A DNA stretch of 64,000 nucleotides from Eublepharis macularius (taxonomy: Eukaryota; Chordata; Lepidosauria; Squamata; Eublepharidae), in contig NC_072791.1 in assembly GCF_028583425.1 (NCBI RefSeq), positions 190,378,311-190,442,310 on the forward strand. Reading direction: 5' to 3'. The first letter of the stretch is position 1, and each line of letters opens with the position of its first letter. The position numbers and the translations under genes are program-made. The notes beneath the pieces are model-generated. The model made no database searches and was not told where the DNA came from. It was given only the letters and a program-made list of their open reading frames with translations. Positions 31,304 through 64,000 of this stretch are shown here, in pieces.

Positions 31304-31437
31304 AAAAGTAAGCCATTAGGACGGGGGGCGTGGCGTCGCAGCGGAGAGGAATGGACGCATGTTGAGAACGCTCCGACCCTCCCGATCCCAAAGCCTCACC
31401 AACAAACACTACGAGGGGAAATAAATCAAAGAAAATA

Positions 31438-46880: not shown

Positions 46881-48540
46881 GTCTTGAATAGTTACGCAAA
46901 CTTGTATGAAAACTGTATCACACTAGAACAAGTATGGACATGATGCAGAATGATGTAAACTGAGTTTCCCCGTGTTAGGGCAAATACACAAGACTCTTCC
47001 TAAAACAAGAATGACTGGATAATCCTAAAACAATCTTGCTGATTAGTTCTTTGCTTGCACAACTCACAGGAGGCCATGGCATCAATAGCTATAAAGTGAT
47101 GTCTCATAATTAAGACAGCAATTATAGGGGGGGGAAATTAAGACCGCAATTACCAAAACATTTTCATGTCGACTTTCAGCATGAAAAAAAGTTTTCCCTG
47201 GCTATAAAGGGATTGTAATCATCGCTGTAAGCTATTAGTCATTCAACAGTATCCTAAAATGTATTTGCACAGTTTTTAATGCACAATTTGCAGATTATAT
47301 CCAATATGCTCAGGTGAACCAAGCTGAAGCTTGCATAGGAAGTATGAGTAGATGAAGGTGATCTCAGCAGGGGCTGTGGCAGGCTGGATCTTGCTCTGCC
47401 ACTGTGTACTGAGTACACGTATTCTTAAGTGGGGGTGGGGTGGGGAGGAAAGAGAAACAACAAAAAAAGGTTAGGTTTATGTTATTAAGGCTCCAATCCT
47501 ATAGGAGTAAATGCCATTGGATTCAATGGGACATATTTCTGAGTAAACATCCATAAATTCTGGAGGCACAGATAACATTTTTAACACTGCAGTCCTATGC
47601 AGAGTTATACCTTTCTATGCTCATTTACTTCAGTGGACTCAGAGGGGTATAACTATGCTTAGGATTGCGCTGTAAATCATTTAATACATTATGGCTTCAA
47701 TCCCAGGAACACTTTTTTAGGAGTAAGCCCCATTGAAAAAAGTGGAACTTACTGCCAATTAGACCTGTTTAGAATTGCTATGCAAGGCAGTGTAAAATCC
47801 TTTATTCCTTGTGCAGTTTAGAACCATTGGCACCCATTTCCCCTGCACTTTACTGGGCAAGGTAGACAAGTCTATGGAAACAGGTGACTGGATGATCACA
47901 ACTGTATTCCTTCAAGTTAAGTAGTGGCATACATGTGAATGTGAGAAAAATTTTATGTGCACAAAGTAATAACTATCCACCTTACCTAAAGATTTTCTTG
48001 GAAGAAACATGAAAATTTATACATGCACCATGAAGTATAAAAGGAGCTTACAGTCAAAGGCATTTACTGAGTGAAAACCAACATATGAAAACAATAAACC
48101 ATCAACTGAGAGAAGGAAAGCACACCAGTATGACAGTTTCAGCAGCAGTGAAGCTTCATCTGTTGTAATGTGTACAACTGGCCTCTGGGGACAGCTTTCT
48201 GCTTTGCGTGTTCTTCAGCTTTGGCCCTTCAGGGCATCTGTAGCAAACTGGTGGTTGTTGAGGCTTACCTGAGAGGCTGACTGAAATGCAGGCTGAGCCA
48301 GAGTGAGAGCTGAATAAAAAACCTGTTTATTGTATATAAAGCTGGTGTGTCGTGGTGGGGATGTACTAAAGGGAATGACAGGATTGCCCATTGAAAATTA
48401 TGGGAGAGGCTTGAAGGCCCATTGGAAATAATGGGAACCAGGAATGCCCATTTACTTGCATGGGCTCTACTGAAACACATTACAGCAAAAAAAAAGTTCC
48501 AAAGAAAATGTGGAATGAATTTGGAAAAAAGGTCTCTGCG
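46881..48540. other. Non-coding DNA with short foldback repeats
   Basis: No gene is supported. Apart from the MITE at 47,585, partial copies of the same family lie near 47,485-47,560 and 47,700-47,790 (GAGTAAGCCCCATTGAA-type words). Confidence 0.45.
47585..47672. mobile_element. Short foldback MITE, ~88 bp
   Basis: The left end CACTGCAGTCCTATGCAGAG pairs imperfectly with a right end whose reverse complement reads CAGCGCAATCCTAAGCATAG. Arms are about 35 bp. The CAGNG-like terminus hints at hAT. Flanking duplications are not clear. Confidence 0.55.
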
Positions 48541-49372
48541 CCCAGATAGACTATTCAGGGACTAGAATGGGCTCTGGAACTGGAACGGCAGGCCCCTAAC
48601 TGGAATGACGGTCTCTGGCTGTATCAGGAGGACGCTCGGACTGGAAAAACAGGCCCCTAACTGGAATGACGGACCCTGTGCGTGACAGAAGGGCTTTGGG
48701 ACTAGAATGATAGGCCCCTGAGTAGAATGAAAGCAGCTGGGTGTATCAGAAGGGTTCTGGGACTGGAATAACAGGCCCCTGGGTGTATCAGAAGGGCTCT
48801 GGGACTGGAATGACAAGGCCCTGAGTAGAATGATGGCCCCTGGGTGTGAAAGAAGAGCTCTGGGAAAGGAGGGACAGGCCCCTGGGTGGAATGGCAGCCC
48901 CTGAGTTTGACAGGTTTCTGGGACTTGAATGACAGACCCCAGAGTAGAATGACAGCCTCTGGGTGTATCAGAAGGGGTCTGCGACTGGAATGACAGGCCC
49001 CTGAGTAGAACAATAGCCGCTGGGTGTATCAGAGGGTTCTAGGACTTGAATGACATGCTCCTGAGTAGAATTACAGCCCCTGGGTGTATCAGAAGCGCTC
49101 TGGGTCTGGAATGAGGACCACTCAGTGGAATGATGACCCCTGGGTATGACAGAAGGGCTCTCAGACTGGAATGGCAGGCTGCTAACTGGAATGACAGACC
49201 CTACTTGTACCAGAAAGACTCTGGGACTGGAATGACAGGCCTCAGAGTGGAAAGACAGCCCCTGGGTGTATCAGAAGGTCTCTAGGACTGGAATGACAGC
49301 TCCTGTGTGTATCAGAAGTGCTCTGGGACTGGAATGACAGGCCCCTGAGTAGAATGACAGCTCTACTCAGCG
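48541..49372. repeat. Minisatellite, ~61-bp unit, about 13 copies
   Basis: Diverged units of GGGACTGGAATGACAGGCCC, CTGAGTAGAATGACAGCCCC and TGGGTGTATCAGAAGGGCTC repeat across about 830 bp, with some half-length units. Minus-strand frames rich in LLIHPGA.HSSP repeats come from this array and are not genes. It ends about 210 bp before the ERV 5' LTR. Confidence 0.92.
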
Positions 49373-50557
49373 GGCAGGGCCCCAGGGAGCGGTGCAGCCG
49401 CGACGTGGGGCCGGCAGCTCGTCTTTGTCTTTGTCTGGGGGTGGGGATTGGGAATTTTTTAGGAAAATTTATTTTTGGCAACCTTTTCTACATTACTATT
49501 AAACATTAAGTAAAAAGTATTAAGTAAAATACTCAATGGGGATGGGGATCAGTTGAAGGTTTTATCTTAAGTCCTGAGCAGTGTTGCCAAGTAGGCCCCC
49601 TCCCCTGCTTTGAAGCCTGCTATGAACTGTGTTAAAGTTTCCTGCGTTGCTGTTTTACTGCTACACCCAAAGACTGCTTTGCATGTGTGTGTTCTGATAC
49701 ACGTGTCAGTTTCCTGCCTGCGTGCCAATTACCCTGCTGCTGCAATAGACTGTGTAGTTTACTGACTCCATGTTTGGGTAACTGCACAAAAAGACTCTCT
49801 TTCTGGGCAGCCCTGCCCTGACCTATATCTGGAATTCCCAGTGTGCGTTTGGACTGTGTTACAAGTGTGCCCCGTGCCTGCATTGCCATCTGCCACGGAC
49901 CGTGCCTGTTCCCTGCCTTGGACTGTGTTTTAAAGTGTTGTTCCCGCTGCCTCCATGGAAGCCTGCCTCATATGGGCCCAAGCCGCTGCTAGCAGCCGGG
50001 CGCCTGCCGGAGAGACCTCCAGCGAGCCTGGCTAGGCGCTCCCTGGTCAGTTCCCGCCTGGAGCCTCCCGCGGGCCGGTCGCCGAGCTTGCCCTCGCTAC
50101 CGGGCAGCCTGCTATCCAGCCCCAGCTATGCCCAAGCCGGCATCCATGTTCTTAGGCAGCCAGAAGACCCTGGGAAGAAGACTGCTTTGAGAAGCCATTT
50201 CGGCGAAGCGGGCACACCACGTCCGCAGCGAGAGCCCCTCGCCCCGCTCTGCATATCTTAGGAGCCGCCCCGGAGAAGAACTAAGTGCCGACCATCCCAA
50301 GCACTTAGAGAATGCATCTCAAAGAAACCTCCGCATTCCAAAGCTGATGACATCAGGACAAGCCCTGTCCGCTGGAACATCCTTTCAGCCCACTTGGATT
50401 TCCCCCTCCCTCTTTTGTCCCCTCTTCCTGAGGTGTCACTTATCACAATCTGATTACCAAAGTGGCCCATCCAAGCCATTCAGTAGCCCATTAGACCCTT
50501 TGTTTTAATCTGTGAGAACCACCAAGTACAGCACCAGCCCCAGGGTACGTTTTGGGG

Positions 50558-50565
50558 TATTTAAG
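50558..50565 (+). promoter_or_regulatory. Probable LTR TATA box
   Basis: TATTTAAG, in a GC-rich setting about 420 bp before the LTR end. Transcription would start some 25-30 bp downstream, defining the start of R. Inference from motif and position only. Confidence 0.5.
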
Positions 50566-50814
50566 CTGGTCTCTCAGACCACTCGGTGCTCAGGCCATTC
50601 CTATCCAGACTTCCTTGCTGTCCGTCTGTGGTCCCAGTGCTGGCATTGGGCCACCCTCGCTGCTGCGTCTCTGCTTCGCTCCAGGATAAGTGAGTATTCC
50701 CCCTATCATCGTTGGGAACCAGCTAATGCGAACGTCTCTGTATTTCCTACGCTATATTTCTTAGACCTTGTATGTTCTTCGTATGATTGTGCAAGCTAGG
50801 CTTACGCTACACTC

Positions 50815-50820
50815 AATACA
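50815..50820 (+). terminator. Possible LTR polyadenylation signal (AATACA variant)
   Basis: CTCAATACACG resembles the CTCAATAAA of retroviral R regions and lies about 230 bp after the TATA-like box. A canonical AATAAA at 50,952-50,957 is the alternative, but it is only about 20 bp from the LTR end. Confidence 0.35.
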
Positions 50821-50981
50821 CGTGTTTGGACCTTACTCCTTGTCTGCCTCTTTTTCACTAGAGTGTCTGGGATCGGGACCTCCGTAAACATAGGTTATGA
50901 TCCTCGCTTAATATTAATAGTTACAGACTGCTACAGCTAATTCCCCATTATAATAAAAGAGCAGTTCTGGTAACAGTTTAC

Positions 50982-51000
50982 TGGTGGAGAATGCGGGCAT
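50982..51000 (+). promoter_or_regulatory. Primer-binding site matching tRNA-Ala
   Basis: TGGTGGAGAATGCGGGCAT starts with the TGG that pairs with the tRNA CCA end. It is complementary to the 3' end of a vertebrate tRNA-Ala(AGC) type ending ATGCCCGCATTCTCCACCA, as recalled from known tRNA-Ala sequences. It lies 6 bp after the LTR. It does not match the usual tRNA-Pro, Lys, Trp or His sites. Confidence 0.7.
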
Positions 51001-51570
51001 AACCCAGTTCGTGTGAATACACGTGAGTCGACACGCGTGTCTTCAGCGAACTGACTTAGAGGAAAATTTTCCAGACCTCTGTGTAAAGAGCGCAATTTAG
51101 CTCAGGGAATTAAAAGTGTGAGTGTGTGTGGCTCTAGCGAGCAATTCTATCTTGTGGGTTGGCTTTTCCCCATTTCCTCCTTCAGCCAGCTTTGGACTAC
51201 TTGCCTTTTGTGGTGCACCGCGAGGCCCTCCAGCCGTTATAACCGGTGTACTGTGGGTGAGGACCTCTGAACTGGTGAAGTTCCTGGCCACCTTCCGGGC
51301 CGCCTAAACGCGTCTATGTGGGTGGGATCCCAGAAGTAGGCTCTAGATATATACGCATATATATACTTCCTGAAGCAGCACATATAAAACTCTTTTCCGC
51401 CCTCCCCCGTCTCTCCTAAGTCCGTCCAAACCCCGTTCCTGCCAGCACTTAGGCTTCAATCCCCGCTCCGGAGGAAACGTGAAGGGATCGATAGTCCGTT
51501 CGTTTGTTCAGTAGTTTAGCTTTGGGAATCTAAAGCCAGGTTCCTGAAGCCCCGCGGCAGCCGGCCGCAC

Positions 51571-52125
51571 CGTGCTTAAGAGTTTTAAGTTAGACTCTTG
51601 GGCGCCATTCCGCTTGCGAGTTTTAAGTCAGACTCGTGGGCACACCTCGCTTGGGAGTCAGTGGGACTCTTGGGCACACTTCTGCTTGGGAGTTGTTAGA
51701 ACTCTTGAGCGCACCTCGCTTGGGAGTACAGTAAGCTTTACTCCTGAGCAATTTTGCTTGGGGACGTGCAGAGGCAGTCCTTGAGCGCTGTAGTCTTTTG
51801 GTCGAGGCTTGGAGACAGTTTAACCGTTTGTCTCTGAGCACGAGGCCTGGGGACACTTTGAGCTTAGTTCTTGGGCAGAGAGCTTGAGAGCATTTTGGCT
51901 TCTAAGCAGAGGCTTGGGAGCATTTCTGGTTGCCTGAGCAGAGGCTTGGGAGACCCCCTTAGTTGCAGTTCCTGAGCAGAGGCTTGGGGACACTTTTTGG
52001 TTTTCCGAGTAGAGGCTTGGGAGACCCCTGAGCTTTGGCTTCTGAGCAGAGGCTTGGAAGCACTGAGCGTTTTTGTTCTTGGGCTTAGAGAGCTTGAGAG
52101 CACCTTCTGAGCCAGTAAGCTTTTC
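51571..52125 (+). repeat. Degenerate tandem repeat in the ERV leader
   Basis: Recurring core words are GCTTGGGAGT, ACTCTTGGGC and, in the second half, GAGCAGAGGCTTGGGAG. Spacing is about 40-48 bp, with about 13 units that drift in sequence along the array. It is in the position where packaging or dimer signals usually lie. Confidence 0.75.
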
Positions 52126-52419
52126 CTGGTCCCGTGGCTTGTAGGCAAGCTTGAAACGGGAATAGGAATTTTTCCTTCTCCCCCGGTGGAGAAGAACTGA
52201 GTGTAGAACCCTTAAAAATACCCTTGTGACCCTAAAAGTAGGACCTTAAAACCCCCTGGTAAAAACCCTTGAGGACCTGAGGGAAGGATAAACCTCCCGA
52301 AAGGAACATAGAGAGGAAGAAGTTGTTAAAACCCTTGAGCAGCTTTAATCGCCCCACCCCTGGTGTCGCTGATCCACTCTGTAACCTCCCCCGAGATCAG
52401 CCTTAAACTAAAAGGAAAA

Positions 52420-54405
52420 ATGTACCGGGCAGCCCCCACCGTGCCCCGCCTGGAGAAGTGGCTAGTTAAGAAGGGAGATTGCCCTTGGGAAGCCGGATCC
52501 TTCAAGGGACCTGACCCGCTCCAAATAGTTAGAAGCGCCTTCCAGGATTTTTGCGAGAAGGAGAAACCCAGGTCAAGTAAGAAGGATAGGTATGGAGCCT
52601 GGGCACTTTTCACCGCCCTACAGGACAGCGTGTCCCTAATTAATAAGCTCCAAGTAGCTCAGGAAGAACAGGAACAGGAGATAGAAAAGCTAAGGAGAGA
52701 AAAGAAGGAACATGAGGAAAAAGCAGCCGAGTGGCGTTCAGAACGCGTTAACTTCATGCTGGAGAAGCAGGGACTAGCCGCTGCCCTCCAGGACGCCCAG
52801 CACAAGGCTGAAGTAGCCACCGCTCGTGCCGATATGGCTGAGCACGCAGTAATTGAAGGTCAGGAGAAAATTGCAAAGTTAACCCATGCTGCCCAGTTCA
52901 TGGCAGAACAGAAAGTCGCAAAGATAGCCGCAGCAGACCACTCCGCTTGTAAGAGGGAGCTAGAGGCCCTAAAACAGCACCTGGGAATGCAGCAGGCCGT
53001 AATTTCCGCCGTGCATCCCGCAGCCCTCTTGGCCCTCCCCGAAGGTAGTACCGGCAGTTGGTCACCTCCTTCGCCCCAGCCCGAGGAAGCTCCACAGCCC
53101 CTCCATCCGATAGCTACCAAAGAAATTGTCACCACAGACGATGATGGCAGGAAGACAGACCGAATAGTTAAGGAGACCCGCAATTGGAGGCCCGATGAGC
53201 TCCAAGCCATAGCGGACCGCATGGGACCCCTGAACCGAGACTCAGCTATACAATGGTTTGCACACGTGACCATGTCCCAGCCCTCCGCCAGTGGCTCCGA
53301 TGTAGCTCAGCTGGCTCGCCATTGTGCCAGCCCCGAAATAGTCACCTCCCTCAACGCATATATTTCTAACCGGAGACTAGCCACTCGCAGTCAGTATGGT
53401 GCCATGAAAGAGTTGTGCGCCTTCCTGTGGCCCACCAAGAGTTTAAAAGCCCTGTATATTGCAGAGTCTCAAAAACCCGGAGAGGATCCAGAGGCATATT
53501 TAGCCAGGAAAAAGCTCCTAGCCGAACTAGCAGACGAGGTAGATTTAGATTTGAGCGACATGCCGGACTTCGACGACTTAGAATTCAGGAGGGCAGTCAT
53601 AGATGGACTCAACAGCACCACTCGCCTAGCCCTAGCAGGAGTTGAGCCCGGGAGCATTACATGGGGAGAGCTGGAATCCCGCATCAGGAGCATTGCTGGC
53701 CTGTTGCGAGAGACCGGCGCCATCCGCCATGTGAAGTCCCCGGCCTCTCGTAGGAAGGAAAGCGAGCCGATTAGTGCAGTTACCTATGCCAATCATGGCC
53801 CCCACTCTCAGTACCGACCACAGGGACGCAGCCCGTATCCGGAGGCAAGGGGAGGAATCCTGAGGGGAAGGAGCAGTAGCTTTAACCGGGGAAGAGGACC
53901 GAGGGACTACCGTCCGGGAGTTTCCTTTGCGCCTACCCCGAGTTACAGTTCCTCCTCCCAGCAGGGACCCCACGAGCCCCGACTACAGGATGCACCCATA
54001 GCCCCTTCTCACTCGCGAGCATCGCACCCGTACCACCATCAGGTCTACCCGCCTCCAGATCAGTCTAATGCTTGGGGAGCATCGCAGGGCGACCACGAGG
54101 GCTACCGGGACCGCGGCAGCACGCCCCAGTCCAGGGACTCCCTCCGTTGGGAACTATGGATGCGCCTCAAAAACATTGGAGCGAACATGGAGCTCTTCGA
54201 CGGAAAGCCCACGTCCGTTCTAATGAAGGCGATCATGGAATGGGAAGACCAGCAGCAGCCCCCAGTACCTCCGTCGGCGCCCCCTTTGCCGCCGGACCCT
54301 CCCTTCTCGAGTCCCCCGATAGCTGCGGTTCGGGAACGCCCGAGCCCCAACAACCCCTTTAGAGGAAGCGCCGCTTCCACCGATCAGGGTGCAGGATCAG
54401 AATAG
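52420..54405 (+). CDS. ERV Gag polyprotein, 661 aa
   Basis: Structural polyprotein of the retroviral core. The first ATG in the open frame is at 52,420 (MYRAAPTVPRLEKW); the frame extends 57 bases upstream only through a GTG. About residues 70-190 form a long charged coiled coil. About 260-460 looks like capsid, with a major homology region QKPGEDPEAYLARKK at residues 351-365. From about 455 the protein is disordered, with Gly/Arg patches (RGRSSSFNRGRGPRD, about 485-500), many Pro, and a PSAP late motif at 618-621. No CCHC zinc knuckle is visible. It ends at an in-frame UAG, after which pol continues in the same frame. Cleavage sites cannot be placed. Confidence 0.88.
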   Translation: MYRAAPTVPRLEKWLVKKGDCPWEAGSFKGPDPLQIVRSAFQDFCEKEKPRSSKKDRYGAWALFTALQDSVSLINKLQVAQEEQEQEIEKLRREKKEHEEKAAEWRSERVNFMLEKQGLAAALQDAQHKAEVATARADMAEHAVIEGQEKIAKLTHAAQFMAEQKVAKIAAADHSACKRELEALKQHLGMQQAVISAVHPAALLALPEGSTGSWSPPSPQPEEAPQPLHPIATKEIVTTDDDGRKTDRIVKETRNWRPDELQAIADRMGPLNRDSAIQWFAHVTMSQPSASGSDVAQLARHCASPEIVTSLNAYISNRRLATRSQYGAMKELCAFLWPTKSLKALYIAESQKPGEDPEAYLARKKLLAELADEVDLDLSDMPDFDDLEFRRAVIDGLNSTTRLALAGVEPGSITWGELESRIRSIAGLLRETGAIRHVKSPASRRKESEPISAVTYANHGPHSQYRPQGRSPYPEARGGILRGRSSSFNRGRGPRDYRPGVSFAPTPSYSSSSQQGPHEPRLQDAPIAPSHSRASHPYHHQVYPPPDQSNAWGASQGDHEGYRDRGSTPQSRDSLRWELWMRLKNIGANMELFDGKPTSVLMKAIMEWEDQQQPPVPPSAPPLPPDPPFSSPPIAAVRERPSPNNPFRGSAASTDQGAGSE

Positions 54406-54475
54406 GGTTGCCCCGAGTCCCAGTCTCCCTCCGTGGGCATAGTTGCCAAACTAAAGCCGGACACATGGGGGAGAC
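54403..54475 (+). promoter_or_regulatory. Gag-Pol readthrough stop with candidate pseudoknot
   Basis: UAG at 54,403-54,405 is followed by GGU, and the same frame stays open for 1,279 codons. Downstream an H-type pseudoknot can be drawn. Stem 1 is TGCCC (54,409-54,413) with GGGCA (54,435-54,439). Stem 2 is GTCTCCC (54,423-54,429) with GGGAGAC (54,469-54,475). In gammaretroviruses a pseudoknot 8 nt after UAG drives about 5% readthrough. Here the spacer is only 3 nt, so the fold is tentative. Confidence 0.5.
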
Positions 54476-57400
54476 CGACAGTAAAGGCAGGGATCGGGAC
54501 TCCCGGGGAAAAGAAGAAGCCTGCCACCCTCCTCATAGATACCGGAGCTTCACTTAATATACTCCGGCCCACCTTAGTTACAAAGGGCACCCAGACCCCC
54601 ACAACCATGCAGCTCGCCGGTTTTGGAGGCGGCACGCAGGAATCCCCGGTCTGGCAGGATATCCCCCTCTCCGTTGGGAACCTGGCCACCCGGATTTCGG
54701 CGTGCGCAAACCGGGGAGAAGACGATGGACTTTTGGGCATGCCATTTTTCCGTGCCGAGGGACTGACCATTGACCTAGCGAACGGGCTCCTGTGGCGCAT
54801 CCCGGGAGGCCCAGACTTTGTTAATGCAGTCCATCGATGCGCAGCCCTCAAGGCCCCCCTTCCTCTCGCCCCCATCACAGGAGACCCCTGGGTTCAGGAC
54901 TTTCCCGAAGTGTGGGTGACAGACAAGGCCGAGTGTGGGATAGTGAAGGGCGCCTGCGTCCTGATTGAAGGAAAGGACCCCCCTCCCCAAAGACAGTACA
55001 AGTACCCAGCAGAAGCTGAGGCAGGGATAGCCAAGACCATAGAAGGACTCCTTGAGTGGGACGTCATACTCCCGATGCAGTCCATCTGCAACGCCCCATT
55101 GTGGCCAGTTCTGAAAGCAGATGGAGTGACCTGGAGAATGACGGTCGACTTCCGTGCCCTGAATGCCACCACCCCTCCAGTTGCCCCGGTTGTGGCCAAG
55201 TATAATGAGATCCTAACGGCCATTGCCGCTGGGTCCCGGTTCTACTCGGTCATAGACCTGGCCAATGCTTTCCACTCCATCCGGTTGCATGAGTCTTGCT
55301 GGTACAAGTTCGCGTTCACTTTCCGCGGCCAGCAATACGCATTCAAGCGGACCCCCCAGGGATTCCACTCCAGCCCCAGCATTTGTCATGCCCATGTAGT
55401 TCAGATGTGGGAACGCCTCCAACCCTCCTCGAGGCCCCACGTACTGAGCTACGTGGATGACATTTTAGTCCACGCCCCCACGGAAGAATTAGCCCGCCAA
55501 ATCACCAGGGAAGTCCTGGAACTCCTCCGCGAGACTGGGTTCAAGGCAAGCAGGGAAAAGGCCCAATTGGTTCAGACCAGCGTCAAGTACCTGGGTCTGA
55601 CCCTGGGACCCGAGGGTCGCACCCCGGACGCCCAGCGAATGGAGGTCATTTCCAAGCTGCCTGCACCCACCGATGTCCCCTCCCTCAGAGCCCTTCTAGG
55701 AACTTTTAACTTCTCCCGAGACTTCATCGAGTCCTTTGCAGACAAAGCTCGCCCCCTTTATGCTCTCCTCAAGAAGAACACTCCCTGGGAGTGGGGACCG
55801 GAGCAACAGACAGCCTTAGCCGAGCTAAAGCGCAGTCTGGCCGCAGCCCCGGCCCTAGCCCATCCAGATGTTACCCAGCCCTTCTTTATCCAGTTAGCAA
55901 TATCAGACAAGAGCATAGGAGCCACGCTCACCCAGCAGCAAGCAGGAACCGCTAGAGTAGTAGCCTATGCCTCTCGCAACCTAACCGCAGTAGAAACTAA
56001 GTTTAGCCCATGCGAGAAGACATGCCTTGCTCTGGTTTGGAGTCTGACCCATTGGGAATTTATCATAGGAGGTTCACGTACAATAGTGCAAACCACTCAC
56101 ACGCCCCTCAAATATATCCTGTCGGGAAAGATACAGGACGGACAAGTTTCAAACGCTCGCATAGCCCAGTGGACCCTGGCCCTGGTCAACCGCGGAGTAG
56201 AATTCAAAAAGGAAACCACTGAGCCACCAGCCCCCTATGGCCTATTGGTAACCGGGACCGAGCACGAGTGCCCCCTGGACCCGCCACCACAGGTTGTCTG
56301 GCCAGTCACTTGGGGAGTCCCGCTAGAGGAAGCCCGACAGAACGGCTTCACATGCTGGTTCTGTGACGGCTCCTCCTTTCACGTTGGAGGCTCCCCTCGG
56401 ACAGGCTACGGCGCCGTGCGAGTGAGCGACGCCCATACCCTCAAAGGTCCAGCCCGCCCCCATTCCAGCCAAGCGGCTGAGGTGCAAGCGCTTCTGGCGG
56501 TGCTTGAGTTTGAGCCCCCAGAAAGCCCACTTGCCATTTACACAGACTCGGATTGGACGGCCAAAGCCGCCACGGTCTGGCTCCCGGTGTGGCAGAATCA
56601 GGGGTGGAGAGCCAGCGATGGGAAACCCGTAGCCCACCTACAGCTATGGCAGCAAGTAGCAGCACTCCTCCAGTCCCGTTCAGGCCCAACGCAGGTGACC
56701 CATGTCAAGGGACACCAGAAGACAAATTCAGAGACCGCTTATTGGAATGACCAGGCAGACCTTGCAGCCAAGGCAGCCGCCACTGAAAGTGCTCCCCCAC
56801 CGGAACCAGCCACCGATTGTCCCCTCCGCCCTGTCACCACTCGGGCACAAGCCCGCAGCCAAGCTCAGGGAACCGCAGGAACACTAGACCTAGCACAACT
56901 GCAGCAATCAGACCCAGAAATAACTGACCTCCTAGCCGCAGGAAGGGATCAGACAGGGAGACTCATGATCAGAGAAGAGGAAGGCATAGTTTGGGCAGTA
57001 GATGCAGCCGGCGAACGCCATTGGGTAGTGCCATTGGAAGTTAGGGCTGACTTAATTCAGTTTGTCCACGAGCAGGGACACCGAGGCAAGGATCTGACTC
57101 TGGAAAGGGTAAAAGAGGTTGGTTGGTGGCCTGGCATGCGCACCGAAGTAGCGCAATGGGTAGACAACTGTCTGTCCTGCGCTATGGTTAATGCAGACCC
57201 CACCGGACCTAGAGCTCCCCTCCAGCATCAGAGAATTGATGGACCCTGGGCTCGCATACAGATTGACTTTATCGGCCCCCTTCCCCCCACTGCTCGCGGC
57301 AATCGCTACTGCCTCACTGTCATAGACCCCTTTAGCAAATGGGTCGAAGCGTTTCCGTGCAAGCGCAACAATGCAGCCACCACAGCCAAACTACTGTTCA

Positions 57401-58245
57401 ACAATGTCTTTTCAAGATGGGGCATTGTGCGAGTCATGGACTCCGATTTAGGCTCACACTTTATCGGAGAAGTTACACAGGAGCTTTGTAAAGCACTAGG
57501 CATCCAGCAACGGTTCCACATAGCCGGCCACCCTCAAGCTTCAGGCGCCATAGAAAGAACCAACCGGACCCTCAAGGAGGCTCTCCGCAAGATGGTTCGC
57601 TCCTCCGGGAGAGACTGGGATGAAAAACTCCCCATAATCCTAATGGCCATTAGAGGCACTACCGCAGTTCACGGGCTCACACCCCATATGGTAATGACAG
57701 GGCGAAGAATGCAGCTCCCGGAAGCCTTCTGGCTAGATACGCAGCTCCCTTCAGATATGCAGCCTGTAGTGATTAATGATGCTTGGGTCCAAGACCTGCT
57801 CTCATCCATACACGCCGTCCACATGCAAGTAGCCCAGAAGCTGGGCACAGCTCAGAAGGATATGGACCGCAAATTGGGATGGGTCAGGAACCCCAGGCAG
57901 TGGGAAGAAGGACAGCTCGTTCTGTACAGGAAGTTTTCGCAAAAGGCGCACTCACTAGCAGCCAAGTGGCAAGGCCCAGTCCCTATCACAAAAAGAGTCT
58001 CCCCAGCTGTCTATCAGGTAGCCATCCAGAGAAGGACAGGAGGAACGTGGCTAAAATACTTTCATGCCTCTCAATTAAAAGAATGGAAAGGGAAGCCGCT
58101 GCAAACCGCCCCTCCTGTGTACGACCCCGGGGGAACCGCCACCAGTCCAGCCCCCCTCTGCCCAGTGATTCGCCAGATATCCCTCCACCCTGGGCCAGAG
58201 ATACCGTGTGTCCCCTTAGACCAGACCTTTGTAGCTTTAGAATAA
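54406..58245 (+). CDS. ERV Pol (PR-RT-RNase H-IN), 1,279 codons
   Basis: In frame with gag and lacking a start of its own, so it is expressed as Gag-Pol. Residues are counted from 54,406. Protease: LIDTGAS, with DTGA at 45-48. Reverse transcriptase: WRMTVDFRALN, TPQGFHSSPS and the catalytic YVDD at 349-352. RNase H: the acidic set D654, E692, D714 and D785. Integrase: zinc-binding H888, H892, C922 and C925, and a catalytic triad D954, D1014 and E1050 with exactly 35 residues between the last two. The C-terminus has a GPY/F-like module (KWQGPVPITKRVSPAVYQV). Stop TAA at 58,243-58,245. No frameshift or internal stop is visible. Confidence 0.93.
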   Translation, partial: GCPESQSPSVGIVAKLKPDTWGRPTVKAGIGTPGEKKKPATLLIDTGASLNILRPTLVTKGTQTPTTMQLAGFGGGTQESPVWQDIPLSVGNLATRISACANRGEDDGLLGMPFFRAEGLTIDLANGLLWRIPGGPDFVNAVHRCAALKAPLPLAPITGDPWVQDFPEVWVTDKAECGIVKGACVLIEGKDPPPQRQYKYPAEAEAGIAKTIEGLLEWDVILPMQSICNAPLWPVLKADGVTWRMTVDFRALNATTPPVAPVVAKYNEILTAIAAGSRFYSVIDLANAFHSIRLHESCWYKFAFTFRGQQYAFKRTPQGFHSSPSICHAHVVQMWERLQPSSRPHVLSYVDDILVHAPTEELARQITREVLELLRETGFKASREKAQLVQTSVKYLGLTLGPEGRTPDAQRMEVISKLPAPTDVPSLRALLGTFNFSRDFIESFADKARPLYALLKKNTPWEWGPEQQTALAELKRSLAAAPALAHPDVTQPFFIQLAISDKSIGATLTQQQAGTARVVAYASRNLTAVETKFSPCEKTCLALVWSLTHWEFIIGGSRTIVQTTHTPLKYILSGKIQDGQVSNARIAQWTLALVNRGVEFKKETTEPPAPYGLLVTGTEHECPLDPPPQVVWPVTWGVPLEEARQNGFTCWFCDGSSFHVGGSPRTGYGAVRVSDAHTLKGPARPHSSQAAEVQALLAVLEFEPPESPLAIYTDSDWTAKAATVWLPVWQNQGWRASDGKPVAHLQLWQQVAALLQSRSGPTQVTHVKGHQKTNSETAYWNDQADLAAKAAATESAPPPEPATDCPLRPVTTRAQARSQAQGTAGTLDLAQLQQSDPEITDLLAAGRDQTGRLMIREEEGIVWAVDAAGERHWVVPLEVRADLIQFVHEQGHRGKDLTLERVKEVGWWPGMRTEVAQWVDNCLSCAMVNADPTGPRAPLQHQRIDGPWARIQIDFIGPLPPTARGNRYCLTVIDPFSKWVEAFPCKRNNAATTAKLLFNNVFSRWGIVRVMDSDLGSHFIGEVTQELCKALGIQQRFHIAGHPQASGAIERTNRTLKEALRKMVRSSGRDWDEKLPIILMAIRGTTAVHGLTPHMVMTGRRMQLPEAFWLDTQLPSDMQPVVINDAWVQDLLSSIHAVHMQVAQKLGTAQKDMDRKLGWVRNPRQWEEGQLVLYRKFSQKAHSLAAKWQGPVPITKRVSPAVYQVAIQRRTGGTWLKYFHASQLKEWKGKPLQTAPPVYDPGGTATSPAPLCPVIRQISLHPGPEIPCVPLDQTFVALE

Positions 58246-59825
58246 AAGAAATAGTAGAATATGTAGATATCGGTGTAAATGTTAAAAGTTTTTCCAGTTC
58301 TATTCTTTGACCTCATTAGGCGGGCCCCACAGTTGGGACCCTTGGGAGAAGACACGGCAATCAAAGCCAAATAGGACCACCACCGAAAGTGATTCTTAAT
58401 TGGATTTTAAGCCGCATGTTCGGAAAAAAATTGCACAGGCAAAAGAGATTTGCTGTGTGTGAGGGTGGTTGGAGAGGCTTTAGCCCAGAGGTGACTGTAT
58501 TCTTTCGAACATGGTGGAACCACCAAATAAGGTGATCCCTGTATTCGAAAATATATCACCCGCCGTGCTGGTGAAGATCCCGCATCTACGTAGATTCGGG
58601 GTCTCACCTGCCAGACCCACGCTTTCGCATGATGGTCGGCTTTGGCTTTGAGGGCCGTGCCTCCCCTGGAAAAGGACCCCCAGATAGCCCAACATCCCTC
58701 TTCTACTAATGCTCATATTCGTCATGGTGAGTTGCTATACGGCGCCACCACTTAGTACGCTTTAGTGCAAAGGTAAAAGACCCGCCAGTATTTTGTAAAT
58801 ATGTGACCCCTGGAATGTGTTATTGGGGTGCGTTCGCCACGCACAAGGGGCAGCGTACCTCATTTACATAGCCAGGATCCCCCGCGCCAAGATGACCCCC
58901 GATTCACCCAGACTCAGTGGCGCCGGCAGATCTCGGCCGCCTCCGCCGCTTTTCGATAAACGCCGCCGAGCGCCCTCGGCTCCACTTCGGCCCTTTCCGC
59001 CAGCAGCCGCCCGCCCCACGTAATCTTTTCCCTTGCCCGTACCGCACAAGGGAAAAGAAGGGGGGGAGACATGTTGAAGTTTTAATGAAGCCCTGCCAGG
59101 CCTTCCAAGTGAGGGCATCCCAAAAGTACCCCACACCCGTATGCCTCTTGCTCCGTGTATTTTTCTTTTTGCTCAGTGCATTTTTCTTTTGCTCAGTGTA
59201 TTTTTCTTTTTGCCCGGTGTACCTTTTTTTTAAAAACCAGAAAATGGGGCCTCCCGAGGGAGTCCCTCCAAAAATTGCTAGTCCTGCAAACATATGACGA
59301 AGGCCTATTTTTGAAAAATTAAAGCGAGGGCCCCCGTCCGCAGCAACCCTTATAGTTAATGGAAACCGCTCTCTAGTTTTCTTTTCTTTTTAAAACGGCA
59401 AGGCCAGGCCGAGCCGGACAGATAGCTCTCAGCCCGCAAAATAAAAATAACCCGCCACCGAGCAAGGGGCACCTGAAGGCCACATAGTCTAGGCACCCAG
59501 GGACCCCTGGGGCGAGTTTGCATAATCCCGCCTAACGTTCAGCCAACCCTTGCCCGACGCAAAGACGTCCCCCCTGAAATATACACGCTTTAGAAAGAAA
59601 CCTTCGCACAGGAGTTCCCCAGAGCAACAAGCTGGAAGGCTCGCTTAGTGCTCCGGGACTTCTCGTTCGAGCCCCACCTAATAGACAGTGCTGGCAGAAA
59701 TACGCCCTCCTTTTTCCCCGCTTTACTTCATTCATTTTGCTGCAAGAAACTCAGGGAACCTGTACTTATATCCGCAGGTCTCCCCAGGATATTTTCACTA
59801 CAAAAAGGAAAAGGAAGGCCAGGAG
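58246..59825 (+). other. ERV pol-env spacer, 1.58 kb
   Basis: Most retroviruses overlap pol and env or place them close together, so this gap is unusual. Small plus-strand frames (for example 58,917-59,297, GTG start) show no known domain. A ~22-bp unit (CTCAGTGTATTTTTCTTTTT) is repeated about four times at 59,150-59,230. The likely env splice acceptor is at its 3' end. It could hold a decayed accessory gene or an RNA element; neither is shown. Confidence 0.6.
59761..59777 (+). promoter_or_regulatory. Probable env splice acceptor
   Basis: A modest pyrimidine tract ends in TATATCCGCAG at 59,777, about 48 bp before the chosen env ATG. This is the expected arrangement for a spliced env mRNA. 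Confidence 0.45.
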
Positions 59826-62213
59826 ATGAGGCACCTGGCTACTCTGTGTTTGCTCGTGCTAGCAGGCACCCTAATAGAGGGACGCCCGTCCAAATTAATG
59901 CCCTACCCCCACTGGAGATGTATCAATACCCTGGCAGGGAATGAAATGATGGTCTGCAAGGTTGTGCAGCAGAGCAATATGACCACCCCCGCGGACCGCA
60001 CTAACTTCCGCAGTTGCGAAGAGCAGTGGATCCGACCCCCAGAGCTTGTTATTTTATGTGTAGGAGTCAAAACTCTGTCCCAAGAGCTAGTGTGCTATTC
60101 ACCTACTGACACAGTGTCACCACTTGCTCCGATTCCATGTATGTTTCTTCCCCGTATCAGGCCTGCCCCCACCGCAGTCCCGGTGGTAGACAAATATACC
60201 ACCCCTGCCAACTTCGAAACCTCGCCATTTGTCACTGAGGCTTTCGGACCATACTGCGAAGTTATTTTAGTGTCGGCCGCAGTATGGAAGGCAGGAGACC
60301 CCTTCAGAATGACCATCCTACTAGGCACCACTACCACCGAGTCTGCATCTGTCACTATCACGCCCCCTTCCGGCACAGTTCTCTCCTTTGCTATAGAACG
60401 CTGGGAGAACCTGACCTGGATTGTAAAAGAGGAAGACCTAGCCAAACATGGCCCACCCGATTGGATTCTGGTTCAGCAGACGCCCGAATGCCAAACCAAG
60501 CCCCTAGTAGAGAAATTTCACCGGCTTGGGCTGCTCTTTGTAAATTTGACTCATGAACCAGGCAACTACTCCCTGCTGATCCGGACCCAGGAGACCCACA
60601 CCATCCAAATTGACCCCTTGATTACTAGCAATGAACAATTAAGCCAAGGCGGCACGCATATAGTGGGCTCCCATGTTTTGAAAACTGACATTCGAGAGAG
60701 AGTTCTAGTCCGCCCGCAAATGTCTTTAAAAGAGATCCGCATAGACTTAGCTGAGCTAAATATAACCCAGAGGCTGCCGCAGTGCGCTCCCTATCTGGAG
60801 GCCGGTAGCAAGGGTTGGAATGCATGGCTACAACTGTGGATCGATCCCTCTCCTTCTCTCTCGCGTGCCAGACGAAGCATTGCCGACTGGACTGCTCCTG
60901 CAGCCGGAGGCTTAGCAATCATGGATTCGGTCAATATTGAGACTCTCGCTAATAAGTTTGCCCATGTCACGACTAGCATCTCCGACTTAGGTAAACCGGT
61001 GGTGCAGTCCCTAAATTCCATTTCGAATGGGCAACACGAGATCAGCTCCATTTTAGTTAACTGGGAGAGTCAAATTGAAAGAGATTTTTCTCTGATGCTC
61101 AAAGGAACACAGTCTTTGGAACGCAACATGTCAATAGCCATGGCATGTATGCAAGCCCAACAATTAAACCAGGCTGTGGCCATGGGGCTAATTCGGCAAG
61201 CCACGGATGGGCACTTGCCCCTAGAAATTAAAAGATTGATTATGCCCAAATTGTCACCCATAGAACTGGAGCTTGAATCCTGGTGGTCTCTTGTAAATTC
61301 CTCATTCTCACCGACCACCCAGGAGCTTAAATTATTTTTATTAACGGCCAGTGCGCACGAGTCATTCCATGTGTATCCAGTCGTGCCTCTGGGACTCCAA
61401 GTCAGCGATACCGAGGTCCTCTACGCCCGCCACCCCGACCATTGGGCCCGCTTCACCCCGACCGGATGGCAGCTCGTCAGCCTCCAAGGGTGCCAGCATC
61501 GAGACCAGACCGGCTTCATTTGCCAGGACCAAGCCTTTGCACCTCATCACCCCTGTGTAGCCCCGCAAGTCGACGCCCTCAACGAATGCCCTTTCGAGGT
61601 CGTCCGGGAGAACAGCTCCGCTGTCGTCTACATTGGGAAAGGATGTGCCTGCGTGCGAACGGCCTGCGACTTTGTGGTCCTAAACTCGTTCCAGCTCAAG
61701 CCTGTGATCCCGGGAGTCAATCGCTGCTTTTGCAACCTGTCTTCGGTGGCAGCCTGCGACTTCACCTACACGGTACCGGTCTGGACCCAAGAAGAGATCC
61801 TGGTGGCACCCTCCATCTATCGTCATGTGAAGCCAGTTTCCCTTGGCATCGGTCTGGAATTAATCCATGAGCTCCTGGCCCACCCGCAGCTCCACCGCAC
61901 CCTCCAGGGCATCCAGAGGGACGGGGACACAACTGCTTTGGTTGTGTCCCACAACGGGAAGGAGATTTTGGATCTTGTCCAGCGGATTAAGACCACCGGA
62001 GAGCACTCGTGGTGGGAAACCCTCTTTGGTTGGAGCCCCACTGCCACTGGAATTTACAATTTGGCTTTGCACCCGATTATTGTTATTTTGGCTTTTCAAG
62101 TTCTACTATGTGCCTCACTGCTTTATTTGGGCTGTTGGAGCCGCCGACAGCTCCAGCAACTCCAACTATCCTACCGTTTGGACCATTACAACCCCGACCT
62201 CCTCCTGCCCTAA
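59826..62213 (+). CDS. ERV envelope glycoprotein, 795 aa
   Basis: Virion surface glycoprotein precursor. The ATG at 59,826 is chosen because it opens a clear signal peptide (MRHLATLCLLVLAGTLIEG) just after a splice acceptor; the frame itself is open from further upstream. SU is about residues 1-350, ending at a furin-type RARR (60,864-60,875). TM is about 445 residues. Nine N-glycosylation sequons are visible, five in SU and four in TM. A tryptophan-rich segment (HSWWETLFGWSP) precedes one membrane span (about 747-772) and a short tail of about 23 residues. No CX6CC motif or gamma-type immunosuppressive-domain sequence is evident. It does not match the gammaretroviral pattern, and the family is unresolved. 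Confidence 0.87.
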   Translation: MRHLATLCLLVLAGTLIEGRPSKLMPYPHWRCINTLAGNEMMVCKVVQQSNMTTPADRTNFRSCEEQWIRPPELVILCVGVKTLSQELVCYSPTDTVSPLAPIPCMFLPRIRPAPTAVPVVDKYTTPANFETSPFVTEAFGPYCEVILVSAAVWKAGDPFRMTILLGTTTTESASVTITPPSGTVLSFAIERWENLTWIVKEEDLAKHGPPDWILVQQTPECQTKPLVEKFHRLGLLFVNLTHEPGNYSLLIRTQETHTIQIDPLITSNEQLSQGGTHIVGSHVLKTDIRERVLVRPQMSLKEIRIDLAELNITQRLPQCAPYLEAGSKGWNAWLQLWIDPSPSLSRARRSIADWTAPAAGGLAIMDSVNIETLANKFAHVTTSISDLGKPVVQSLNSISNGQHEISSILVNWESQIERDFSLMLKGTQSLERNMSIAMACMQAQQLNQAVAMGLIRQATDGHLPLEIKRLIMPKLSPIELELESWWSLVNSSFSPTTQELKLFLLTASAHESFHVYPVVPLGLQVSDTEVLYARHPDHWARFTPTGWQLVSLQGCQHRDQTGFICQDQAFAPHHPCVAPQVDALNECPFEVVRENSSAVVYIGKGCACVRTACDFVVLNSFQLKPVIPGVNRCFCNLSSVAACDFTYTVPVWTQEEILVAPSIYRHVKPVSLGIGLELIHELLAHPQLHRTLQGIQRDGDTTALVVSHNGKEILDLVQRIKTTGEHSWWETLFGWSPTATGIYNLALHPIIVILAFQVLLCASLLYLGCWSRRQLQQLQLSYRLDHYNPDLLLP

Positions 62214-62448
62214 TGGTTATTCTTGGCGCCCTCCTTTAACCCTTGTTCGTTTTATTGCTTGTGCCGGTATGGACTATGATTATGTTTATTACTATGTGTA
62301 CGGATCCTGCACCGGCCCCATGGACGCTCTGCTGCCGGACGCCGCTCCAAGGCCCTCTTGTGGACTAGGGGGGGACATGTTTCTCTGCCTCCCAGCCCAC
62401 GGCCCGTCTCCAAACGACCGCCAGCAGCGCCACCTCCATGAGGACTAG
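61867..62448 (+). CDS. Possible accessory ORF overlapping the env 3' end
   Basis: A 193-codon frame with an ATG, in another frame from env. It overlaps the last 347 bases of env and continues 235 bases past the env stop. Its centre is hydrophobic (WLCTRLLLFWLFKFYYV) because it overlaps the env membrane segment. The part beyond env has no known domain. Its position resembles that of spuma and deltaretroviral regulatory genes, but chance openness in GC-rich sequence is equally likely. Confidence 0.25.
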   Translation: MSSWPTRSSTAPSRASRGTGTQLLWLCPTTGRRFWILSSGLRPPESTRGGKPSLVGAPLPLEFTIWLCTRLLLFWLFKFYYVPHCFIWAVGAADSSSNSNYPTVWTITTPTSSCPNGYSWRPPLTLVRFIACAGMDYDYVYYYVYGSCTGPMDALLPDAAPRPSCGLGGDMFLCLPAHGPSPNDRQQRHLHED

Positions 62449-63670
62449 AACTGTGTGCCTGAAGCCCTTCTCGCCGCTCACCGACCCTGCTCTGCGGATT
62501 GTCGCAGACAGCAAGGGGGGGTGGAAGTGTGTTTTGGAACACATGGACTAAGTTTGCCTGTTTCTGTAAATATGCAACCCAGTCCAGCAGCTGTACTGCG
62601 GACTGAGCCGTCTGTGATCTTTGTTGCTCTATTGTTTTTATGAAGTTCTTTCCACTGCTTTTATGAATTTTAACTCCCATGAATTTAGCCCCGAACTAGT
62701 CCCCCTCTCTATCTATTGCAAGTGCGCCCATGAACTTTATCCCTATGAATTTGATTTTAACCTTGAATTGCCTTTTTAACCTGACTCCCTCCGCCGAGGT
62801 AATCCTAGCATATCTATTATTTTATGAATTTGGTTTTAACCGGGACCCCTTCTGAACGGTCCCTTTTAAAGGTTATTTTATTTCTGATTTTAAGCTCGAT
62901 GAATTTGGTTTTAATCTGACTATATGAGTTGGTCTTTTAATTGCAGAGTGTATTTTTCTGGCCCCCATGAACCCTTCCGCCGCTTACCCCCCCCATGAAT
63001 TATTTCTCCGCACTTGCTTTTACTATCGCTGCTATCATCTATGAAATCGGTTTTAACTTCCTGAATTATCGTTTTAAACCCTATGTATCTATGTATTTAT
63101 GATTTTAACCATTTATGAATTAGCCTACCCTCAATGAATTATGCCTTGCTTGCACATTTCACTTTACCTTGTATGAATTGCTTTTAATCCTACATTCATG
63201 AATTGAACCATGAATTGTCTTTGCTTTTAAATCCTATGCTTATGAATTAATCCATGTATATGAATTACCCCTGGTTTTAATGCTTTTAACCCACCATGAA
63301 TTCCGTATGAATTACCTCCCGCCATGAATTGATCAATGTACCCAAACATGAATTGTTGTTGTTTATATGCATGAATTGATCATTGCTGCCTATTACTATG
63401 AATTACTATTGCTATGAATTATTACTATTTATTCTGACGGTTGCACTTAGCACACCCCCTGGTGTGAACCCAGAGACCTGCAGCCCATTGGCTGATCTAA
63501 ATTGCACTTATTCGGTTAGGTGGTTCTCCAAACTAAATTTTTGAGTGACGCCTCCGCCCCCTTCCCTTCCCACTCCTTCTTCGCTCGAAGCTCGACCACC
63601 GGACATTGCCGACCACCTCGCCTTTGAAGTCAAGTTCGGAGACCCGCGCGCCTGACGTCCCGGGGTCTCC
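62214..63670 (+). other. ERV 3' region between env and LTR, 1.46 kb
   Basis: Apart from the overlapping ORF, it is non-coding. Two extra G-rich runs (near 62,367 and 62,512) resemble additional polypurine tracts. The section from 62,662 to 63,420 is the ATGAATT-rich array listed separately. Confidence 0.7.
62662..63420 (+). repeat. ATGAATT motif array in the ERV 3' region
   Basis: By eye the heptamer ATGAATT occurs about 20 times in roughly 760 bp, all on the plus strand and usually preceded by C or T. About 15 TTTTAA words, often followed by C or T, are interspersed, mainly in the first two thirds. Spacing is irregular, so it is not a simple tandem satellite. Chance expectation for one heptamer is well below one. 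Confidence 0.85.
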
Positions 63671-63682
63671 GAGGGGGGGAAT
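63671..63682 (+). promoter_or_regulatory. Polypurine tract
   Basis: GAGGGGGGGAA followed by T, ending directly at the 3' LTR TGTTGCCA. This is where plus-strand DNA synthesis starts in retroviruses. Confidence 0.85.
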
Positions 63683-64000
63683 TGTTGCCAAGTAGGCCCC
63701 CTCCCCTGCTTTGAAGCCTGCTATGAACTGTGTTAAAGTTTCCTGCGTTGCTGTTTTACTGCTACACCCAAAGACTGCTTTGCATGTGTGTGTTCTGATA
63801 CACGTGTCAGTTTCCTGCCTGCGTGCCAATTACCCTGCTGCTGCAATAGACTGTGTAGTTTACTGACTCCATGTTTGGGTAACTGCACAAAAAGACTCTC
63901 TTTCTGGGCAGCCCTGCCCTGACCTATATCTGGAATTCCCAGTGTGCGTTTGGACTGTGTTACAAGTGTGCCCCGTGCCTGCATTGCCATCTGCCACGGA
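63683..64000 (+). repeat. 3' LTR, first 318 bp
   Basis: Identical by eye to 49,582-49,899 of the 5' LTR. The window ends inside U3. If full length it would extend about 1,076 bp further. Confidence 0.95.

What the first reader, a model, noticed from the sequence alone, without database searches (positions are those of the whole stretch)
49582..64000. Unusually large, apparently young ERV with an unassigned mosaic of features
Seen: ~1.39-kb LTRs, a 12.7-kb internal region, open gag, pol and env, and no LTR difference over 318 visible bases. Extrapolated total is about 15.5 kb, larger than foamy viruses (about 13 kb) and far above gammaretroviruses. Known: spumaviruses have zinc-knuckle-free, Gly/Arg-rich Gag and long genomes; gamma and epsilon types use same-frame Gag-Pol readthrough. 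Inference: this may be a poorly described reptile lineage combining both patterns.
Basis: partly seen in the sequence, partly recalled or inferred. Interest (0 to 1): 0.9.

Follow-up and report, generated by a model that had tools for sequence, protein, structure and literature searches.

The report
Intact retrovirus of bird Ovex1's lineage
This stretch holds a retrovirus copy, cut short only by the window's right edge, with all three main genes open and with two ends that match wherever both are visible; it groups with bird proteins that are very likely Ovex1, a gene made from a retrovirus, and so likely shows what the virus behind that gene looked like.

Summary
A provirus starts at 49582: 1394-bp 5' LTR, 12.7-kb interior, and a 3' LTR from 63683 of which 318 bases are visible, all identical to the 5' LTR. 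Gag (661 aa), Pol (1279 aa) and Env (795 aa) are open; the 15 enzyme residues checked are all present. If the 3' LTR is full length the element is 15,495 bp.

It is assignable. RT and integrase trees place it with turtle and unnamed relatives and with bird proteins that carry the published marks of Ovex1; Env is 34% identical over 561 aa to the envelope-like part of one of them. Grouping with gammaretroviruses is rejected; grouping with foamy virus is not.

New here: an open, apparently young copy with LTRs, a primer site fitting alanine tRNA (recalled) and a cleavable Env beside Ovex1-type Pol. Host and copy number are unknown. Verdict: new member of a known, still unclassified lineage.

The parts
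49582..50975 (+). 5' LTR, 1394 bp, TG...CA; single AATAAA at 50952-50957, only 18 bases before its end
   Evidence: right end inferred from inverted ends and primer site
50982..50999 (+). primer binding site; complement of the 3' end of alanine tRNA(AGC)
   Evidence: sequence; the tRNA sequence and its G3:U70 mark are recalled, no tRNA database was searched
50976..52419 (+). long leader; frames carry 31, 22 and 23 stops; short tandem repeats at 51631-52064
52420..54405 (+). gag, 661 aa from the first ATG of ORF 52339-54405; MHR-like motif, no zinc knuckle, 149-residue proline-free stretch, TAG stop
54406..58245 (+). pol, 1279 aa in the gag frame: protease, RT, tether, RNase H, integrase
54403..54490 (+). 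amber stop and following RNA fold, predicted readthrough signal
   Evidence: -33.4 kcal/mol, z -2.44, 2 of 200 shuffles as stable
58246..59825 (+). pol-env gap without a supported gene; 21-base tandem repeat at 59148-59231
59826..62213 (+). env, 795 aa: RARR cleavage site at residue 347, nine N-glycosylation sequons, C-terminal membrane anchor, no CX6CC
   Evidence: related to P0061 and to the end of P0020
62214..63682 (+). 3' untranslated region, ending in an 11-base purine run (63671-63681) that fits a polypurine tract
63683..64000 (+). 3' LTR, cut by the window edge; 318 of 318 bases identical to the 5' LTR

Best explanation
It is an endogenous retrovirus with open gag, pol and env whose RT and integrase group with bird proteins that carry the published marks of Ovex1 and whose Env matches the envelope-like part of one of them, and it likely entered this genome recently. 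Predicted working: transcription from the 5' LTR; first-strand DNA synthesis primed by alanine tRNA; Gag made from the full-length RNA; Gag-Pol made when ribosomes read through the amber stop, helped by the RNA fold behind it; Env made from a spliced RNA and cut at RARR into a surface part and a membrane-anchored part; integration by a complete DDE integrase. Shown: frames, catalytic residues, LTR identity, homology of Pol and Env. Inferred: youth, priming, readthrough, splicing, activity, and that the bird rows are Ovex1. The mix of spuma-like and gamma-like traits is the ordinary trait set of this lineage, not a sign of recombination.
For: RT tree: 19 rows including the window at 100/98, apart from MLV, foamy virus, a snake gamma-type ERV and three fish ERVs at 95/94. 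Integrase tree: 13 rows with the window and the bird rows at 95/97. Holding the 19 rows with the gamma rows is rejected, p-AU 5.04e-05. Env against the part of antbird P0020 after Pol: 33.7% over 561 aa, 330 bits, against at most 25.8 bits for 200 shuffles. Same integrase spacing as published for Ovex1, H-X3-H-X29-C-X2-C and X59/X35; GPV where Ovex1 has WMGPVRV; MHR 11 of 20 residues shared, aligned by eye; no zinc knuckle, same-frame TAG. Youth: 318 of 318 LTR bases, no stops where about 99 are expected, CpG observed/expected 0.54-0.69 in LTR, gag, pol and env against 0.30 in the flank.
Against: No Gag homologue was found by search at E 0.001. No strict splice donor was found in the leader and no acceptor candidate closer to env than 59176. 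Within the RT clade the split that joins window and Ovex1-type birds against three turtle-type rows is weak (84/37), and the nearest bird rows by RT are the parrot/finch type, not the Ovex1 type; the integrase tree puts those rows outside the 13-row clade, on a long branch. SpeV, Ovex1 itself and CrocERV37-39 were not in the trees; the bird rows are called Ovex1 from motifs. Flank CpG varies from 0.20 to 0.48 by 8-kb block and the flank is poorer in G+C, so CpG is a soft clock.
Confidence: 0.85

Rival explanations
1. It is a member of ERV4, the class described in 2014 from crocodilians and two turtles, rather than of the Ovex1/SpeV group.
For: [quoted passage not shown]
Against: Chong 2014 keeps ERV4 apart from the Ovex1 cluster, and the Pol, Env and Gag marks here fit published Ovex1. 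No ERV4 sequence was available to test it directly.
Confidence: 0.08
2. It is a deep sister of foamy viruses (spuma-related, class III), and the Ovex1 group is part of that branch.
For: No zinc knuckle; RT scores 101 bits with MLV and 100 with a foamy-type chain, integrase best with foamy virus, 121 bits; holding the 19 RT rows with foamy virus is not rejected, p-AU 0.141.
Against: In the best RT tree foamy virus lies with MLV and fish ERVs at 95/94; same-frame Gag-Pol and an MHR-like motif are unlike foamy virus.
Confidence: 0.1
3. It is a recombinant that joined a spuma-like gag to a gamma- or epsilon-like pol and env.
For: The trait mix at first sight; the Ovex1 paper itself considered different origins for ORF3 and Gag-Pol.
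Against: Pol and Env both lead to the same bird protein set, and the best Pol and Env relatives are listed with the same 8143-base contig length, probably one contig. No Env or Gag tree was made, so old recombination is not excluded.
Confidence: 0.04
4. It is a lokiretrovirus (lokiortervirus).
For: Lokiretroviruses occur in reptiles and have a dual RNase H; the long membrane subunit is unlike canonical retroviruses.
Against: Their Env resembles mononegavirus fusion proteins; this Env gave no Pfam match at E 10 and none to a fusion protein among three weak profile hits. That is a weak negative. No lokiretrovirus RT was available.
Confidence: 0.04
5. It is a co-opted host gene kept open by selection, like Ovex1 in birds, and not a young virus copy.
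For: Long open frames and relatives that appear co-opted in birds.
Against: Identical LTR stretches, primer site, purine tract, complete enzyme residues and little CpG loss; published chicken Ovex1 has only a 73% identical 120-base repeat and no primer site, and the bird rows lost RT and integrase residues.
Confidence: 0.03

Closest known systems
Ovex1, co-opted ERV of birds (PMC2717909)
   Same: Same-frame amber Gag-Pol, no zinc finger, MHR, integrase spacing, GPV in place of GPY/F, no dUTPase, large envelope-like third ORF with C-terminal anchor
   Different: Ovex1 has no LTR pair beyond a 120-base degenerate repeat, no primer site, and lost RT and integrase residues; this element has all of these
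Unnamed contig relatives P0004 with P0061, and P0005
   Same: Pol 79% and 71% identical; Env 56%
   Different: Hosts unknown; LTRs, gag and flanks not seen
Pelodiscus sinensis protein P0007
   Same: Pol 64% identical over 62% of the query
   Different: Partial; whether it is an Ovex1-type or an ERV4 element is not known
SpeV of tuatara and CrocERV37-39 (PMC4299795, PMC2717909)
   Same: Published as the closest kin of Ovex1
   Different: Sequences not available here; no direct comparison made
ERV4 of crocodilians and turtles (PMC4299795)
   Same: No zinc finger, no GPF/Y, no dUTPase, env kept
   Different: Published as a clade apart from Ovex1; not tested by sequence
Gammaretroviruses
   Same: Same-frame amber readthrough layout; RT score equal to foamy-type
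   Different: RT clade rejected; no zinc knuckle, no CX6CC
Foamy viruses
   Same: No zinc knuckle; integrase score best
   Different: Pol in the gag frame behind a stop; MHR-like motif present

Membership tests
Ovex1-type lineage | RT groups with Ovex1 | tested here: met
   19-row clade 100/98; bird rows identified by motifs in P0008, P0013, P0020, inner split 84/37 only
Ovex1-type lineage | Integrase groups with Ovex1; HX3HX29CX2C and X59/X35 spacing | tested here: met
   13-row clade 95/97; spacing
Ovex1-type lineage | Gag and Pol in one frame behind an amber codon | tested here: met
Ovex1-type lineage | Gag with MHR and without zinc finger | tested here: met
   no Gag homologue by search
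Ovex1-type lineage | Coiled coil in the Gag N-terminal half | tested here: inconclusive
   149-residue proline-free, charged stretch; no coiled-coil predictor run
Ovex1-type lineage | Env related to ORF3 | tested here: met
   33.7% over 561 aa with P0020, shuffles at most 25.8 bits
Ovex1-type lineage | Groups with SpeV and CrocERV37-39 | not testable with these tools
   sequences not held
Gammaretrovirus | RT inside the gamma clade | tested here: not met
   p-AU 5.04e-05; groups named after the tree was seen
Gammaretrovirus | Zinc knuckle in Gag; CX6CC in Env | tested here: not met
Foamy virus | RT groups with foamy virus | tested here: inconclusive
   not so in the best tree, not rejected, p-AU 0.141
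Foamy virus | Pol in its own frame from its own RNA, no MHR | tested here: not met
   the foamy features are from papers
ERV4 | No zinc finger, no GPF/Y, no dUTPase, env present | tested here: met
ERV4 | RT clade; 5-bp target-site duplication | not testable with these tools
   no ERV4 sequence; right flank missing
Lokiretrovirus | Env related to mononegavirus fusion proteins | tested here: inconclusive
   no such match, sequence-profile level only
Epsilonretrovirus / snakehead retrovirus | RT clade | not testable with these tools
   no reference sequence; one scan of viral contigs gave no relative

The most novel reading that the evidence does not exclude
A complete, possibly still active representative of a separate, unnamed retrovirus genus that infects reptiles, primes on alanine tRNA, has a genome of about 15 kb, and whose kin gave birds the gene Ovex1.
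Probability: 0.45. Interest if true: 0.7.

Novelty: new member of a known kind. Interest (0 to 1): 0.55.

Why it matters
Ovex1 is an old bird gene made from a retrovirus, most strongly expressed in the ovary, with many sites under purifying selection. Its 2009 description found no primer site, left open whether ORF3 is an envelope protein, and thought ORF3 and Gag-Pol might come from different viruses. An open copy of the lineage with LTRs supplies a likely primer site, shows an ORF3-type protein in the env position with a cleavage site and anchor, and argues against separate origins. It also makes what Ovex1 lost and kept readable by comparison.

Tried and rejected
Gammaretrovirus placement: rejected by AU test. 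Accessory genes in the leader, pol-env gap or 3' region: six side ORFs scored have codon use near zero (-0.035 to 0.021) against 0.103-0.179 for gag, pol and env, and the four of them searched had no Pfam match at E 1; a captured host gene with other codon use is not excluded by the first of these. Host repeats nested in the element: leader, gap, 3' region and LTR share nothing with the rest of the window at E 1e-3. Env fold: model too poor (pLDDT 36.9, 3 sequences), so no fold search was made. Gag capsid region: pLDDT 42.7 from one sequence, not used. Gag homologue search: none at E 0.001; a weak local match of the Gag end to finch P0034 (37% of 43 aa, E 0.004) and parrot P0027 (E 0.44) was left as a lead. 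Viral contigs: 28 pattern matches, none a relative. Host from CR1 tail repeats: one match, 16 of 100 shuffles have one. Rfam and tRNA scans of the window: nothing. Papers on an alanine-tRNA primer with an ERV: one search with one wording, no hits. A first position-by-position MHR comparison was out of register (2 of 20); repeated in register by eye (11 of 20).

Full report
What is there. The window holds a provirus on the + strand from 49582 to its right edge. The 5' LTR is 49582-50975 (1394 bp, TGTTGCC to GGTAACA). A copy of its first 318 bases begins at 63683 and runs, without a difference, to the window's last base. The 3' LTR is preceded by an 11-base purine run, 63671-63681. Six bases after the 5' LTR lies TGGTGGAGAATGCGGGCA, the complement of the 3' end of an alanine tRNA(AGC) as I recall it; the implied U at tRNA position 70 fits the recalled alanine G3:U70 mark. 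No tRNA database was searched. The interior is 12,707 bp, and the whole is 15,495 bp if the 3' LTR is full length.

Genes. Gag (52420-54405, 661 aa from the first ATG) and Pol (54406-58245, 1279 aa) share a frame and are split by one TAG followed by G. Env (59826-62213, 795 aa) is separate. At the genes' own base composition 23.4, 44.8 and 31.2 stops would be expected; none is seen. Pfam finds RT, tether, RNase H, integrase zinc domain and integrase core in Pol above their cut-offs, two protease families and an SH3-like family below theirs, and nothing in Gag or Env at E 1. The 15 catalytic or zinc residues checked are all present. RNA after the gag stop folds at -33.4 kcal/mol, z -2.44, with 2 of 200 shuffles as stable; this fits but does not prove readthrough. 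Gag has no zinc knuckle. Env has one RARR site at residue 347, nine sequons, a C-terminal hydrophobic anchor and no CX6CC. A motif scan found no strict splice donor in the leader and no acceptor candidate nearer to env than 59176, so the spliced env RNA is inferred.

Relatives. The Pol search scored the 7996 candidates sharing most words and returned 57 proteins. The best are unnamed (P0004 79%, P0005 71%, P0006 52%); named ones include Pelodiscus sinensis (P0007 64% over 62% of the query; P0025 41%), Pelusios castaneus (P0024 44%), birds (P0008, P0012, P0013, P0018, P0020; 41-45%), bullfrog and Xenopus (36%). Four of the bird rows and the bullfrog row are labelled NYNRIN-like. The Gag search found nothing at E 0.001.

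Ovex1. Three bird rows were checked for the marks published for Ovex1: P0008, P0013 and P0020 all lost the first two RT aspartates and have E for the first integrase D; P0020, a passerine, has E for the second D too, as published for zebra finch. All three have WFVDGS and WMGPVR(I/V). P0020, 1828 aa, runs on past Pol into a region that matches this Env at 33.7% over 561 aa, E 7e-107; 200 shuffles of that region reach at most 25.8 bits against 330. Published Ovex1 also has a same-frame amber Gag-Pol, no zinc finger, an MHR that shares 11 of 20 residues with this Gag (aligned by eye), the integrase spacing found here and no dUTPase. Other bird rows (P0009, P0011, P0012, P0016, P0018 in the trees) were not checked mark by mark.

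Trees. RT: 59 rows could be cut out and 35 were used; I left out 4 unnamed rows with bird-like scores and 20 lower-scoring retrotransposon rows. Nineteen rows form a clade at 100/98; ten of them are named, all birds and turtles. MLV, foamy virus, a snake gamma-type ERV and three fish ERVs form another at 95/94; P0021 (bullfrog), P0022 (unnamed) and P0023 (Xenopus) are unresolved. The window sits with P0004 and P0005 (100/99), then P0007 and P0006 (97/90), then the parrot/finch-type rows P0026, P0027, P0034 (96/93). The next split, which adds the eight Ovex1-type rows and leaves three turtle-type rows outside, is weak, 84/37. Holding the 19 rows with the gamma rows is rejected (p-AU 5.04e-05), holding them with foamy virus is not (0.141); the groups were named after the tree was seen. 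Integrase: 33 rows were asked for, 4 were too short, 29 were used. Thirteen rows, the window, P0004-P0006, P0010 and the eight Ovex1-type rows, form a clade at 95/97. In that tree the outgroup is not one side of a branch, foamy integrase lies among it, and P0026, P0027 and P0034 fall outside the clade on a long branch. Against solved structures RT scores 101 bits with MLV chains, 100 with a Peptidase A9 (foamy-type, recalled) chain, 59 with a Ty3-type chain (recalled) and 58 with HIV-2; integrase scores best with foamy virus, 121 bits.

Age and host. Zero differences in 318 bases bound LTR divergence at 0.94% (95%), under about 4.7 million years at an assumed 1e-9 substitutions per site and year and 9.4 at half that rate. 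CpG observed/expected is 0.54-0.69 in LTR, gag, pol and env and 0.30 in bases 1-48500, where single 8-kb blocks range from 0.20 to 0.48. Both point to a young insertion. The own-genome search did not complete in eight tries, so host and copy number are unknown. LINE fragments with L1-type and L2-type motifs (labels recalled) fit a reptile, by inference only.

Literature. PMC2717909 (Ovex1): parts 2-5 of 12 read, and passages. PMC4299795 (crocodilian ERVs): parts 1-4 of 8, and passages; it reports CrocERV37-39 clustering with Ovex1 and resembling SpeV, unclassified, and ERV4 as a separate class. PMC5006616 (chicken LTR elements): passages; it reports Ovex1-like envelope proteins in Anolis, Python, Thamnophis and Pelodiscus. 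PMC6001957: parts 1-2 of 5. PMC9040795 (Odin and lokiretroviruses): part 1 of 4, and passages. PMC5753468, PMC8278194 and PMC10435555: passages. PMC9514029: abstract. Thirteen papers of the library hold the word Ovex1, 12 were listed; by title, and by passages in those I opened, none describes an intact reptile provirus of this kind. PMC10435555 surveyed ERVs with identical LTRs in 2004 vertebrates and may well hold such copies under other names. So 'first' is not claimed.

Conclusion. In its working parts this is an ordinary retrovirus, but from a lineage known here mainly through a co-opted bird gene and through partial or reconstructed copies.

Noticed in passing
P0026, P0027 (Lathamus discolor), P0034 (Haemorhous mexicanus): A second bird protein set of the same RT clade keeps all three RT aspartates while RNase H and integrase catalytic residues are changed or missing in all three rows; it may be another co-opted gene, with RT rather than integrase kept.
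   Followed up: partly
P0008, P0012, P0013, P0018, P0021: Public annotation calls these Pol relatives NYNRIN-like; the integrase part of the mammalian gene NYNRIN may stem from a related retrovirus. A lead only; no NYNRIN sequence was compared.
   Followed up: no
window 48532-49360: A diverged minisatellite with a 61-base unit ends about 220 bases before the provirus.
   Followed up: no
window 31366-37621: A LINE on the + strand with endonuclease and RT domains in separate frames and an FADDM motif, L1-type as recalled.
   Followed up: partly
window 43862-45277, - strand: Two RT-domain frames with a YADDTQL motif, L2-type as recalled.
   Followed up: partly
window 50952-50957: The only AATAAA of the 5' LTR lies 18 bases before its end, which would leave almost no U5 unless another signal is used.
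   Followed up: no
window 51631-52064 and 59148-59231: Short tandem repeats of 32-70 and 20-21 bases in the leader and the pol-env gap may account for part of the unusual length.
   Followed up: no
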